From NCBI RefSeq assembly GCF_000743355.1, contig NZ_JQEI01000042.1, forward strand, positions 1 through 64,000: DNA of 64,000 nt, read 5' to 3'. The notes below the pieces were generated by a model. It was not told the DNA's origin. It searched no databases and saw only the letters and a program-made list of their open reading frames with translations. Each line of letters begins with the position of its first letter. Positions within the stretch are counted from its first letter, which is position 1. Position numbers and translations under genes: made by a program. Source of the stretch: Serratia sp. Ag1 (lineage in GTDB: Bacteria; Pseudomonadota; Gammaproteobacteria; Enterobacterales; Enterobacteriaceae). Shown here one piece after another: positions 1 through 2,981 of the stretch.

Positions 1-1632
1 ATTTTGTGATCCACTACAGCTTTCCCCGGCTTCGCCTGGCCAGAATCCTACCACAAGAGCCCCGATAGTGGTCGCAGCAGTCCCTGCTGTTACCGTCGGT
101 GCAGCCTCAGCCAATGCTACTGCTCCACGCGATATAGCACCAGATATAGAGCCCGACAGTGTGCGACCTGCCGTTAGAATACCTTCAGCGAAAGTAGATA
201 ACTGAGTCATCCCCGGGGCACGATTCATTACCAGTGCACCCGCAGCGGTTAAAGAAGCCTGAGCCAACTTAACCATTTCTGACGTATATACTGGCGTGGG
301 GTTTACGCCCGCTTTGGCCATCAGTGCCGCCAGTTTCGCTCGAGCTTCAGCCTCTGCTTTTGCCCTGGCCTCTGCCGCCGCTTTAGCCTCCGCCTCGGCC
401 TTTGCTGTAGCCTCAATCTTTTGTGCCAATTCCGCGGTGGCACTTTTGAGTTGCTCGCTCAGCGTACTAATCTCCCGCCACAATCCGTCAATCTGCATAC
501 GCCCTTCAGAAGCAGCTTTCTCAAAAGCAGCGGCGCGAGCATTAGCATCCATGCGCTCCTGGTTGTGATGACTCCCCAGAAGGCCAGCCACAGCTCGAGC
601 CGAGCGAGCTTGTGCATCTAGACGCTCCACTCTGGCCTGCGTGACAGCTAATAGTTGCTGCCTCTCAGCAAGGCGGGCCTCTGATGCTACCTTACGGCGC
701 TCATATTGAGTGACCTCCGCCACCCCACCTGCCCAATTCCAGGTTACGATTTGTTCAGCCTGCTCTCGTATGGCCCGACGTTGGTTAAGCTCCTCCTGAG
801 CCAGGCTTTCTTCCCGTTGGCGCAATTCAACCTCACTCAAAAGACGGGTCACAGAAATATAGACTGGATCCATGTTCAGCTCTTTTGGAAAGGTCACGAT
901 CGCATCACGAGTATTGCCCCCTTGCATTCTGTCAGACAAAGGCTTGGCAGACTGATCGGTAACTTTAGCAAAAGTCTTACTGTCTAGCTCTGGATTGGGC
1001 TGAACGGCTGACGGCTGTGCGACATCTAGTCGTAGCGGTGTACTCAGCCCTGGTACGGAAACATCAAACTGGCGAGGTTTACCCGTTGGTTTGGCTTGTA
1101 CCACTGGAGCCTTGGTCGGGGTACCTTTATCCCTCACAACTGCCAATACCTGCTTGCCATTATCGATGACATCACTCACATGTCCCTTGACCGAAGCCTC
1201 TGGCTGAGAGAACAGGGTATTTAGGTCAACAGTAACGATATCCTTGGCGGAGATCACCTGAGCAATTTGTTGCTGCTTTACACCAGCGCCAATGACACTC
1301 ATATCATCAGGAGCAATGGATGAAGGCCAAACCGCCGCAAGCGGGGCAAATGCCCTGCTCAATATGCTGCTGGCTACCGCAGCCAATGGTGTCGACGCCA
1401 GTTCACTCAGTGCTGCTGCACCTATGCCAAAAGCGAGAAAACCTTCGGTAAGTGAAAAGGTACCTGGAACCCCACTGGAAACCATCGTCGGAGCAGTCGA
1501 GTTGGAGCCACTGCCTTGACTACTGCCACCACCACTACTCGGCATTCCACCACCTGGTGCTGGAGTCTCCCCCCTTTCTTTACTCCAGGATGTGCCGTCC
1601 CCTGGTCCTCCACCATAATCAAATCCACCCAT
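1..1632 (-). CDS. E-colicin/cloacin-type bacteriocin, N-terminal part (runs off left edge)
   Basis: An open frame of 544 codons without a stop continues past position 1, so the C-terminal killing domain and any immunity gene lie outside the window. The start ATG (1632-1630) has an AAGGAG site at good spacing. Residues 1-50 are Gly/Ser-rich; the run DGTSWS at 12-17 resembles the TolB-binding epitope DGSGWS of E-type colicins. Residues about 60-275 follow the colicin E/cloacin translocation domain, with the hallmark stretch GGNTRDAIVTFPK (238-250) and VYISV after it. Residues about 262-440 are a charged, Ala-rich coiled coil like the receptor-binding hairpin of E colicins. Residues 445-535 are hydrophobic and do not resemble colicin E9 from memory. 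The family kills related bacteria after Tol-dependent uptake. Toxin type (nuclease, pore or other) cannot be told from what is visible. It probably shares a transcript with the gene at 1704-2843, since no separate promoter is evident in the 71-bp gap. Confidence 0.85.
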   Translation of the reverse strand, partial: MGGFDYGGGPGDGTSWSKERGETPAPGGGMPSSGGGSSQGSGSNSTAPTMVSSGVPGTFSLTEGFLAFGIGAAALSELASTPLAAVASSILSRAFAPLAAVWPSSIAPDDMSVIGAGVKQQQIAQVISAKDIVTVDLNTLFSQPEASVKGHVSDVIDNGKQVLAVVRDKGTPTKAPVVQAKPTGKPRQFDVSVPGLSTPLRLDVAQPSAVQPNPELDSKTFAKVTDQSAKPLSDRMQGGNTRDAIVTFPKELNMDPVYISVTRLLSEVELRQREESLAQEELNQRRAIREQAEQIVTWNWAGGVAEVTQYERRKVASEARLAERQQLLAVTQARVERLDAQARSARAVAGLLGSHHNQERMDANARAAAFEKAASEGRMQIDGLWREISTLSEQLKSATAELAQKIEATAKAEAEAKAAAEARAKAEAEARAKLAALMAKAGVNPTPVYTSEMVKLAQASLTAAGALVMNRAPGMTQLSTFAEGILTAGRTLSGSISGAISRGAVALAEAAPTVTAGTAATTIGALVVGFWPGEAGESCSGSQN

Positions 1633-1703
1633 ATTTATCTCCTTGCTTTTCTGTTAGTTGGGTAGTAAACGTACTGTTTCAATACAAAGAATCCTCTGAA
1701 TTA

Positions 1704-2843
1704 TCAGCTCTGGTTGCTGATGATTAATTCTTCCAGCATTGCCAATCGGGACTCCAACTGACGTCTCGCCTCACCTTCTTCTTTTAATGCTTCAATCAGA
1801 AGTGCCACAACACCATTAATATTGATCCCGCGGGCGTCTTTCAGTGTGTTACCGTCATTAAGCCTCAATTCTGTTGTAGTCACTGACTGTGGTAATACGT
1901 TCTCCACTTCCTGAGCAATTACCCCAGCCTCTGGAACCCCCTGCTTCAGATAGGTATACCCACTGATTTTTTGCAGCTTCTCCAGGGCTTCATCAATTTT
2001 CACGATTTCCGTTTTCATACGGGCATCAGAGCTACTATTCCAGCCGCCGTTGGCGAAGGCATAACCTGTGTGCAGGAACTCATACCAGGCATGCTGACCA
2101 TTATTATTGGCAACATGGATCCCCATCAGGTTATGTTTACCAATGCGTTCATAATGGTAGAGTTCTGAATTCAGGCCATTTTCCCCTTGAATACGAACCC
2201 CCTGCGTATAGCGATCCGCATTGTTATTAACAGATAGGGTTCCGGTAGCCAAAATCCATCCGTTGGCATTACGCTTGACGAACTGGCCAGCCGACACTTC
2301 ACTGTTTGCTCTAACATGAATTTCGTTCCTGTTTCCTAGCCGATCGAGATAGGAAAGTATGCCAAAGTCATCTTTTCCAGGAACGGTACGTGAAGTCATC
2401 AACATTGAAGTTGTCACGTTGCCGCTGGTGAAATCGGTATGTATGCCGGGTGCCTCATAGATTTGCCCATTGATTAGAGCGGCAGGACCGGCTGTCACCG
2501 CAGCAATGCCAGCGTTACTTGACACCACAGCACCACCAGATACCTCAACACCGTTACGAAGAGACACTTTGCCGGTGGCAAGATTGAAGGAGAAAGGACG
2601 CAGGGTGTTCCACTGCCCGTCCTGTGCTTGGCCACTTGGCGTGGTCAGGGCATAAAAATCCTGCCCATCGTTACGCAGGATCACGCCGGTATTTCCGTAT
2701 GCCAGACGAAAACCGTTTGGTGTTTTGGATACTATTTCCCCATCGCTGATAACACGCTTACGCAGCGTAGACAAAGATTTCAGTTCAGTAATATCGTCAT
2801 TCACACCGTTCAGTACCTGAGCGTTTTTCATTTCTACAGCCAT
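1704..2843 (-). CDS. Tail-fibre-like protein with C-terminal S74 intramolecular chaperone
   Basis: The 379-residue product resembles the distal part of phage tail fibres. The N-terminal ~270 residues are Gly/Asn/Thr-rich beta-structure. The C-terminal ~110 residues are a peptidase S74 (endosialidase-type) chaperone domain: the SDARMK motif at 272-277 supplies the Ser/Lys pair that in this family cuts the chaperone off after trimer folding, and a coiled coil (about 350-375) ends the protein. The ATG at 2843 has an AAGGAAA site. No other phage structural gene is nearby, so this is an isolated fibre gene, directly upstream of and co-oriented with the bacteriocin gene. From memory, phage-related ORFs precede some Klebsiella bacteriocin genes (klebicins C and D), so the pairing may be a recurrent cassette. 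Its role here is unknown: receptor specificity, co-secretion and a passive remnant are all possible. Confidence 0.8.
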   Translation of the reverse strand: MAVEMKNAQVLNGVNDDITELKSLSTLRKRVISDGEIVSKTPNGFRLAYGNTGVILRNDGQDFYALTTPSGQAQDGQWNTLRPFSFNLATGKVSLRNGVEVSGGAVVSSNAGIAAVTAGPAALINGQIYEAPGIHTDFTSGNVTTSMLMTSRTVPGKDDFGILSYLDRLGNRNEIHVRANSEVSAGQFVKRNANGWILATGTLSVNNNADRYTQGVRIQGENGLNSELYHYERIGKHNLMGIHVANNNGQHAWYEFLHTGYAFANGGWNSSSDARMKTEIVKIDEALEKLQKISGYTYLKQGVPEAGVIAQEVENVLPQSVTTTELRLNDGNTLKDARGININGVVALLIEALKEEGEARRQLESRLAMLEELIISNQS

Positions 2844-2961
2844 TGTTATTTTCCTTTTTGTACAGCCTGTTTTATGACGGTGAGCAGCATCATGCGACCT
2901 CCCTGTTATCAGGGGTAAAGTTCACGCGACTACTGCGAACCAGTAAAATATACAGAAAAAA

Positions 2962-2981
2962 TACTGTATATATAAACAGTG
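2962..2981 (-). promoter_or_regulatory. LexA (SOS) box upstream of the tail-fibre/bacteriocin genes
   Basis: The sequence reads TACTGTATATATAAACAGTG, a CTG-N10-CAG palindrome with the CTGT/ACAG arms and AT-rich centre of the enterobacterial LexA consensus. It lies about 120 bp upstream of the ATG at 2843. Colicin genes are classically repressed by LexA and induced by DNA damage, so SOS control of the whole unit is expected. On the minus strand a TATATT just downstream could be the -10. No second full overlapping LexA box, common at colicin promoters, was found. Confidence 0.85.

What the first reader, a model, noticed from the sequence alone, without database searches (positions are those of the whole stretch)
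1..2843. SOS-controlled pair: S74-type tail-fibre gene followed by an E-colicin-like gene
An isolated tail-fibre gene with a self-cleaving chaperone domain is in one apparent operon with a Tol-dependent bacteriocin gene, with a 71-bp gap and one upstream LexA box. Co-expression of a phage receptor-binding protein with a colicin suggests the fibre may have a role in targeting, release or immunity, or that the cassette was captured from a prophage. From memory, phage-associated ORFs precede klebicin C/D genes, so the theme may be recurrent, with function unexplained.
Basis: partly seen in the sequence, partly recalled or inferred. Interest (0 to 1): 0.75.

Follow-up and report, generated by a model that had tools for sequence, protein, structure and literature searches.

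The report
Tail-fibre gene leading a bacteriocin operon
A Serratia chromosome carries a known type of bacteria-killing cassette (the klebicin C/D type) in which a borrowed phage tail-fibre gene sits under a DNA-damage switch in front of a colicin-like toxin gene; comparison with relatives suggests the fibre is a kept, working part, but not the part that chooses the toxin's receptor.

Summary
The pair is real. A 379-aa S74 tail-fibre gene (1704-2843, -) is followed after 71 bp by a gene for a colicin-E/cloacin-like bacteriocin (1-1632, -). One strong LexA box (2962-2981) precedes the fibre. The bacteriocin gene runs off the contig; its C-terminal part and an immunity-like ORF lie at the end of another contig, and the gene is probably interrupted by an insertion element.

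This is a chromosomal Serratia member of the klebicin C/D "phage-associated bacteriocin" cassette, not a new kind. Near-full-length fibre genes of this family were followed by a bacteriocin in 43 of 45 decidable loci. The reverse fails: 8 of 85 Pyocin_S-bearing genomes have the fibre. Fibres are under purifying selection (median dN/dS 0.145), with an exchanged tip. Very similar fibres sit with unrelated bacteriocin import modules, so the fibre does not set the toxin's receptor; a published KlebC hybrid protein kills without it.

Best reading: a co-released accessory surface-binding protein, generic to the cassette (function inferred). In the klebicin C prophage the cassette sits before Q and lysis genes, 32 kb from the J-type tail gene.

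The parts
2962..2981 (-). LexA (SOS) box, CACTGTTTATATATACAGTA on the - strand, upstream of the fibre gene
   Evidence: 18/20 to the recalled consensus; a box upstream of the fibre in 41 of 54 loci
2947..2976 (-). sigma-70-like promoter (TTTATA-18-TATATT) overlapping the LexA box
   Evidence: consensus match only; 5 found on both strands against 2.4 expected by shuffling
1704..2843 (-). tail-fibre gene of the klebicin C phage-associated protein (Kcp) type, 379 aa
   Evidence: full-length relatives 62-94% identical
2550..2843 (-). fibre residues 1-98: conserved cap and Gp34_trimer domain, also matching 'Tail fiber protein S' (5yvq; phage Mu, recalled)
2049..2273 (-). fibre residues 191-265: variable, exchanged tip
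1707..2048 (-). fibre residues 266-379: S74 chaperone/protease domain with invariant S271 S272 D273 ... K277
1633..1703 (-). 71-bp gap with a Shine-Dalgarno-like AGGAGA; no minus-strand promoter-like site; one weak LexA-like site (14/20)
1..1632 (-). 5' part of the bacteriocin gene (544 aa), cut by the contig end
1570..1599 (-). TolB-box-like stretch DGTSWSKERG (named by eye)
   Evidence: residues 1-58 match the colicin A chain 3iax_B, E 9.6e-7. That 3iax is a TolB-box complex is recalled
805..1614 (-). Cloacin (PF03515) translocation domain
316..816 (-). region with the composition of a coiled coil (TolA-model match below cut-off, residues 273-439)
   Evidence: E3/E9 alignment
25..405 (-). 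central domain; residues 421-524 match colicin D (5znm); found in 34 of 34 non-redundant fibre-paired bacteriocins
1..18 (.). contig-end sequence resembling, in inverted orientation, the end of contig C2: probable edge of an insertion element in the bacteriocin gene
   Evidence: by eye; element itself not seen

Best explanation
It is a chromosomal Serratia member of the klebicin C/D-type phage-associated bacteriocin cassette: LexA-controlled promoter, Kcp-type tail fibre, bacteriocin, immunity gene. Shown by comparison: the SOS box precedes the fibre, not the bacteriocin, so DNA damage should switch on both together; the fibre is maintained as a protein; the fibre tip, the bacteriocin's import module and its toxin are exchanged separately around a shared frame. 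Inferred: the fibre forms a trimer, the S74 domain removes itself, and the short soluble fibre is released with the bacteriocin at lysis as an accessory surface-binding protein. It would bind a variable surface structure such as O-antigen or capsule and concentrate or admit the bacteriocin, while the bacteriocin finds its own receptor and import route. In this strain the bacteriocin gene is probably interrupted, so this copy may no longer kill.
For: Pairing: a bacteriocin follows the fibre in 7 of 9 plasmid records, 18 of 18 genome contigs and 18 of 18 viral contigs where it can be decided (1 more contig ends at the fibre). Fibre (E <= 1e-40) in 8 of 392 family genomes, all 8 with Pyocin_S (E <= 1e-15), which is in 85 of 392. 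No fibre-profile match (E <= 1) in the fetched upstream DNA of 70 fibre-less bacteriocins. SOS: a box upstream of the fibre in 41 of 54 loci; 9 of the other 13 have, by eye, two overlapping boxes; 1 weak site in any gap. Bacteriocin start overlaps the fibre stop by 4 bp in 13 of 46. Protein-level constraint: median dN/dS 0.145 overall, 0.090 N part, 0.197 tip, 0.133 S74. Tip exchanged, as expected of a receptor-binding tip. A Klebsiella island in 2 genomes holds S24 repressor, N-like antiterminator, holins, endolysin, fibre, bacteriocin and immunity between a pyruvate:flavodoxin oxidoreductase gene and META-domain/D-2-hydroxyacid dehydrogenase genes, with no tail gene recognised among its ORFs.
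Against: I found no experiment on the fibre. A purified KlebC-E9 hybrid with Im9 kills Klebsiella and E. coli (PMC8324772, passages), so the fibre is at most accessory. Nothing shows that fibre and bacteriocin touch: the fibre N part and the bacteriocin central domain show no special co-variation (partial r 0.11, against 0.37 for the S74 part, which lies nearer on the DNA). The tip is not wholly independent of the bacteriocin: weak correlation with the Pyocin_S part (r 0.25, p 0.001) and the central domain (r 0.12, p 0.023), and a weak link to the import-module group (p 0.014, groups split by hand, no phylogeny correction). The fibre structure model is poor (mean pLDDT 52). No surface ligand is identified.
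Confidence: 0.45

Rival explanations
1. The fibre is a decoy or exclusion factor: released soluble tips occupy phage receptors on kin (or on competitors), so the SOS-induced lysis that frees the bacteriocin does not let phages sweep the producer's clone. It acts beside the bacteriocin, not on it.
For: Tip and import module are exchanged largely independently; cassettes occur as cargo in prophages, in one case beside a BstA abortive-infection gene; a KlebC hybrid kills with no fibre.
Against: Near-full-length fibres of this family were without a bacteriocin in only 2 of 45 decidable loci; a pure anti-phage factor should also travel alone.
Confidence: 0.2
2. The fibre is a carrier or assembly partner inside the producer: its conserved N part holds the shared central domain of the bacteriocin, for folding, storage or export, whatever the import module.
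For: The central domain occurs in 34 of 34 non-redundant paired bacteriocins, against 5 of 70 fibre-less ones examined; the fibre N part is its most conserved segment.
Against: The central domain matches that of colicin D, which works without a fibre (recalled); no special co-variation; shared descent explains the association, and the profile was built from the paired set; a variable tip is not needed for this.
Confidence: 0.12
3. The fibre gene is only a recombination anchor or passenger: it gives upstream homology that lets bacteriocin import modules be swapped, as the 2005 title on klebicin diversification suggests.
For: Import modules really are swapped between fibre and central domain: 8 groups in 34 bacteriocins; S74-end similarity tracks the neighbouring import module.
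Against: An anchor needs DNA identity, but synonymous sites are near saturation while the protein is conserved (median dS 1.2 in 136 pairs with dS 0.05-1.5, dN/dS 0.145); S271, S272, D273 and K277 are invariant in 27 rows.
Confidence: 0.13
4. The fibre is an alternative tail fibre put on phage or tailocin particles that are induced by SOS in the same cell.
For: It is homologous to phage long tail fibres and to tail fibre protein S; cassettes occur in prophages.
Against: It starts just before the gp34-like domain, so the part that attaches to a tail seems to be missing (the match in the 504-residue protein S chain starts at 251); it is co-inherited with a bacteriocin, not with tail genes, which lie 28-33 kb away in 7 of 11 records.
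Confidence: 0.07

Closest known systems
Klebicin C cassette (kcp-kca-kci, AY578793; Chavan et al. 2005, not held; described in passages of PMC10269471)
   Same: Kcp-type fibre, then activity gene, then immunity gene; central domain shared; window fibre 66-67% identical to that of L068, whose bacteriocin residues 1-254 are identical to the solved klebicin C chain 7ng8
   Different: Window import module is E-colicin/Tol type, not the TolC/TonB type of KlebC; chromosomal, no prophage next to it; no known toxin domain matched on the C2 piece; gene probably interrupted
Klebicin D cassette (kdp-kda-kdi, AY578792) and the Serratia marcescens WW4 locus (PMC3717176, section 17 read)
   Same: [quoted passage not shown] WW4 shows the pair was already noted in Serratia in 2013
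   Different: Colicin D-type tRNase (klebicin D) or colicin-DNase-like toxin (WW4); the role of the fibre gene was not tested in the section read
E colicins / cloacin DF13 (PF03515)
   Same: Translocation domain and TolB-box-like stretch
   Different: Classical E colicin operons are not led by a fibre gene and carry a lysis lipoprotein gene (recalled); a lipobox pattern found only 2 chance-like small ORFs within about 1.6 kb after 34 cassettes
Phage long tail fibres with S74 chaperone (T4 gp34/gp37 type and relatives)
   Same: Gp34_trimer-like and S74 domains
   Different: All 1493 phage records matched are below 60% identity; tail-attachment part seems missing; linked to a bacteriocin

Membership tests
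klebicin C/D-type phage-associated bacteriocin cassette | Kcp-type fibre gene directly upstream of and co-directional with the bacteriocin gene | tested here: met
   71-bp gap
klebicin C/D-type phage-associated bacteriocin cassette | activity gene with central and Pyocin_S domains | tested here: met
   central domain on the window; Pyocin_S on the separate piece at the end of contig C2; pieces not joined, that they are one gene is inferred
klebicin C/D-type phage-associated bacteriocin cassette | immunity gene after the activity gene | tested here: inconclusive
   91-aa ORF of the right place and size at L084 8451-8726, no Pfam match; by eye a similar ORF follows the fibre-less L158 bacteriocin
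klebicin C/D-type phage-associated bacteriocin cassette | SOS control through a LexA box ahead of the fibre | tested here: met
   by sequence only
group A (Tol-dependent) E-colicin-like bacteriocin | Cloacin translocation domain and TolB box | tested here: met
   by homology only
group A (Tol-dependent) E-colicin-like bacteriocin | killing that needs TolA/TolB | not testable with these tools
   no experiment
S74 self-cleaving tail fibre | S74 domain with conserved serine/lysine motif | tested here: met
   that cleavage occurs is inferred
tail module of a resident prophage | fibre adjacent to tail genes | tested here: not met
   next genes on the window are a GH1 glycosidase and a PTS gene, on the C2 side Cas1f and Cas2-3; in prophage records the J-type gene is 28-33 kb away in 7 of 11 and not found in 4

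The most novel reading that the evidence does not exclude
The cassette makes a two-protein bacteriocin: a domesticated, trimeric phage receptor-binding tip acts in trans as a generic, exchangeable surface-docking subunit for a line of colicins whose import modules and toxins are exchanged independently. That would be a third way, besides fused receptor domains and tailocins, of aiming a bacteriocin at a cell surface.
Probability: 0.3. Interest if true: 0.8.

Novelty: new member of a known kind. Interest (0 to 1): 0.5.

Why it matters
A phage-associated gene has been known in front of klebicins C and D since 2005 (recalled; cited in PMC10269471), and I found no experiment on it in the library searched (most subscription papers are missing there). 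The comparison turns it into a testable question. The fibre is a constant, selected partner of one bacteriocin lineage across chromosomes, plasmids and prophages, but it is uncoupled from the receptor the toxin uses. If it aids access through capsule or O-antigen, tests of such bacteriocins that use the toxin alone have left out part of the natural product.

Tried and rejected
Rejected or not supported: the fibre as the last gene of a prophage; the fibre as the bacteriocin's receptor subunit; a fibre-bacteriocin docking signal by co-variation (no special signal); a conserved leader peptide between LexA box and fibre (none seen in 19 loci); a colicin-type lysis lipoprotein after the cassette (2 pattern hits in 34, both look like chance); the fibre in E. 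coli genomes (no match); a wide spread outside the family (2 of 394 order-wide genomes, the window's own and one more of its genus). The pairs come mostly from Serratia and Klebsiella, with a few Erwinia, Enterobacter and Rouxiella.

Results against the reading or limiting it: 13 of 54 loci lack the LexA box by the rule used, and the 9 overlapping double boxes were read by eye in near-identical Klebsiella prophage promoters. The window has one weak LexA-like site in the gap. 5 of 70 fibre-less bacteriocins carry the central domain, so that domain does not require the fibre. 2 of 9 plasmid fibre records have no bacteriocin (L036, L044), L024 has a split bacteriocin and L039 a broken fibre though both count as paired; fibre fragments also occur (L040-L042, L063, L064; L041 and L063 without a match to another bacteriocin). 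Of 145 Pyocin_S places listed (my hand count), 9 belong to fibre cassettes; of the other 136 I fetched and examined 70, hand-picked with frames of about 450 aa or more, not all that qualify. The loci are not independent: sets overlap and hold near-identical strains. The 3 same-module, different-tip pairs are in effect one comparison, because L071, L072 and L074 are near copies. For the label test I split the 8 import-module groups by hand into 11. Rows dropped before the 34-member counts: L039 and L063 (broken); L043, L045, L049, L052, L055, L069, L070, L073, L078, L079, L080, L081, L083 (duplicates or near copies); L024, L036, L044, L065, L082 gave no bacteriocin ORF by my rule; L085-L089 were checked for pairing only.
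Full report
What is there. The window begins at base 1 of contig C42 of a 5.35-Mb genome in 109 contigs. The genus is Serratia, judged from same-genus contigs that reappear under named records of the same length (for example G003:C81 and Serratia oryzae J11-6, 229,799 bases). On the minus strand lie a tail-fibre ORF (1704-2843, 379 aa) and, 71 bp on, a bacteriocin ORF (1-1632) cut by the contig end. Pfam gives Gp34_trimer and Peptidase_S74 for the fibre and Cloacin for the bacteriocin. Residues 1-58 match the colicin A chain 3iax_B, and the domain behind matches colicins E3 and E9, so a Tol route is likely by homology. A LexA box (2962-2981) lies 138 to 119 bp before the fibre start and overlaps a promoter-like site.

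The other half. The rest of the bacteriocin is inferred to be at the end of contig C2, the one Pyocin_S place found in the genome at E <= 1e-15: a Pyocin_S-bearing frame, then a 91-aa immunity-like ORF, then Cas1f and Cas2-3 of a type I-F CRISPR system. At both contig ends a short similar sequence appears in inverted orientation. An insertion element inside the gene explains this best; the element was not seen and not named. An intact relative exists (L028, the same place as L052, 802 aa, 68% identical over the shared part). The two pieces were not joined.

Recurrence. Plasmids: 9 records carry the fibre at 60% identity or more over 80% or more of its length, 7 with a bacteriocin behind it; in L036 a Tn5403 transposase gene follows the fibre at once, in L044 there are about 2.7 kb without listed genes (that gene table is incomplete) and then IS26. 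Named genome contigs: 18 of 18 full-length fibres are followed by a bacteriocin; 2 further loci are fragments from one Enterobacter genome. Viral contigs: 18 of 18 decidable, 1 contig ends right after the fibre. These sets overlap and hold near-identical strains, so they are not independent events. In 392 family genomes the fibre occurs in 8 (9 places, one of them partial); all 8 non-window places have Pyocin_S downstream on the same strand, while Pyocin_S occurs in 85 genomes. None of 70 fibre-less bacteriocins examined has a fibre-profile match upstream. The fibre depends on the bacteriocin, not the reverse.

Control. A LexA box lies within 250 bp upstream of the fibre in 41 of 54 loci (4 of the 54 are second copies of one place); about 0.3 would be expected from the background rate. 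Of the other 13, by eye, 9 have two overlapping boxes, 1 a box with shortened spacing (L046), 1 is cut at its 5' end (L044), and 2 (L059, L062) sit behind an S24-type phage repressor, holins and endolysin. Among 70 fibre-less bacteriocins, 6 have such a box near the called ORF start. In 13 of 46 loci the bacteriocin start overlaps the fibre stop by 4 bp.

Selection and shuffling. In 34 non-redundant fibres the N part is 79% identical on average, the middle 68%, the tip 59% (lowest 22%), the S74 part 71%. Median dN/dS is 0.145 for the whole and 0.090, 0.164, 0.197 and 0.133 for the four parts, from pairs with dS of 0.05 to 1.5 (136, 191, 135, 82 and 151 pairs). The bacteriocins carry 8 groups of import module (34 proteins) and 6 groups of toxin part (33 proteins), with one shared central domain of the colicin D type (34 of 34; 5 of 70 fibre-less). 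Of 561 pairs of cassettes, 19 have fibre tips more than 85% identical with unrelated import modules (no BLAST match in 18, a 31-residue match in 1); the window and Serratia oryzae have identical tips. In 3 pairs, in effect one comparison, the import module is the same (about 97%) and the tip only 64%; in 5 pairs both are alike. Over 33 cassettes, fibre frame and bacteriocin frame share history (r 0.39 to 0.52), while the tip is uncoupled from the fibre N and S74 parts (r 0.02, 0.03) and only weakly tied to the fibre middle (0.21), the central domain (0.12) and the Pyocin_S part (0.25). So the cassette has a constant frame and separately exchanged slots: fibre tip, import module, toxin.

Where cassettes sit. 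In Serratia: between treR and treB in 6 loci (L046, L047, L048, L050, L051, L054), while L031 has treR and treB side by side; in L045 between a glycogen phosphorylase and a glycerol-3-phosphate dehydrogenase gene. Klebicin C itself, recognised because residues 1-254 of the L068 bacteriocin are identical to the solved chain 7ng8, sits in a prophage in the order BstA, fibre, klebicin C, immunity (by position), Q, holin, endolysin, with the J-type tail gene 32 kb away. In L059 and L062 (Klebsiella michiganensis and K. grimontii) an island of about 7 kb holds repressor, N-like antiterminator, holins, endolysin, fibre, bacteriocin and immunity between a pyruvate:flavodoxin oxidoreductase gene and META-domain and D-2-hydroxyacid dehydrogenase genes. 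That the fibre is kept there without tail or head genes recognised is the best hint that it works with the bacteriocin; not every small ORF of the island was annotated.

Mechanism. A KlebC-E9 hybrid, purified as a complex with Im9, kills Klebsiella and E. coli; KlebC is TonB-dependent and uses TolC (PMC8324772, passages seen; the terms phage and fiber gave no hit in it). That no fibre was present is my reading of these passages. The fibre is therefore not required for killing such strains and does not set the receptor. Bacteriocins that first bind a polysaccharide and then use a transporter are mentioned in PMC10906532 (passage). A separate fibre could do that first step here. This is inference.

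Known or new. The arrangement is known from klebicins C and D and was described again in 2023 (PMC10269471, passages), where the authors inferred a binding role for kcp from similarity. A gene similar to the klebicin C phage-associated protein was annotated in Serratia marcescens in 2013 (PMC3717176, section 17). The 2005 paper is not held, so its content is recalled or taken from citing papers. Searches for work on the fibre's role showed me no experiment on it; I opened passages or sections of only some of the papers listed. The window's member is a new member with an E-colicin-type import module. What seems new is the comparative picture: one-way dependence, protein-level selection, and independence of fibre tip and import module.

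Noticed in passing
L084 3825-8083 (contig C2 of the window's genome): The cassette's far side borders a type I-F CRISPR system (Cas1f and Cas2-3).
   Followed up: partly
L059 2916-9549 and L062 2952-9331: Small Klebsiella chromosomal islands with S24 repressor, holins, endolysin, fibre, bacteriocin and immunity look like prophages pared down to a bacteriocin factory.
   Followed up: partly
L068 4255-10311: Klebicin C lies in a prophage between a BstA abortive-infection gene and the Q antiterminator.
   Followed up: partly
L053 9893-12905; also L048 10248-10787 and L054 9592-10269: Orphan C-terminal bacteriocin pieces behind the cassette, a possible store for toxin exchange.
   Followed up: no
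L046, L047, L048, L050, L051, L054; L031; L158: The cassette repeatedly occupies the treR-treB interval in Serratia; L031 has the two genes side by side, and by eye the fibre-less bacteriocin of L158 also sits beside a treB-like gene.
   Followed up: partly
L027, L030, L032 bacteriocin residues about 1-250: An import module without a confident Pfam match (weak PqqD-like hits in L030 and L032 only), possibly an undescribed kind.
   Followed up: no
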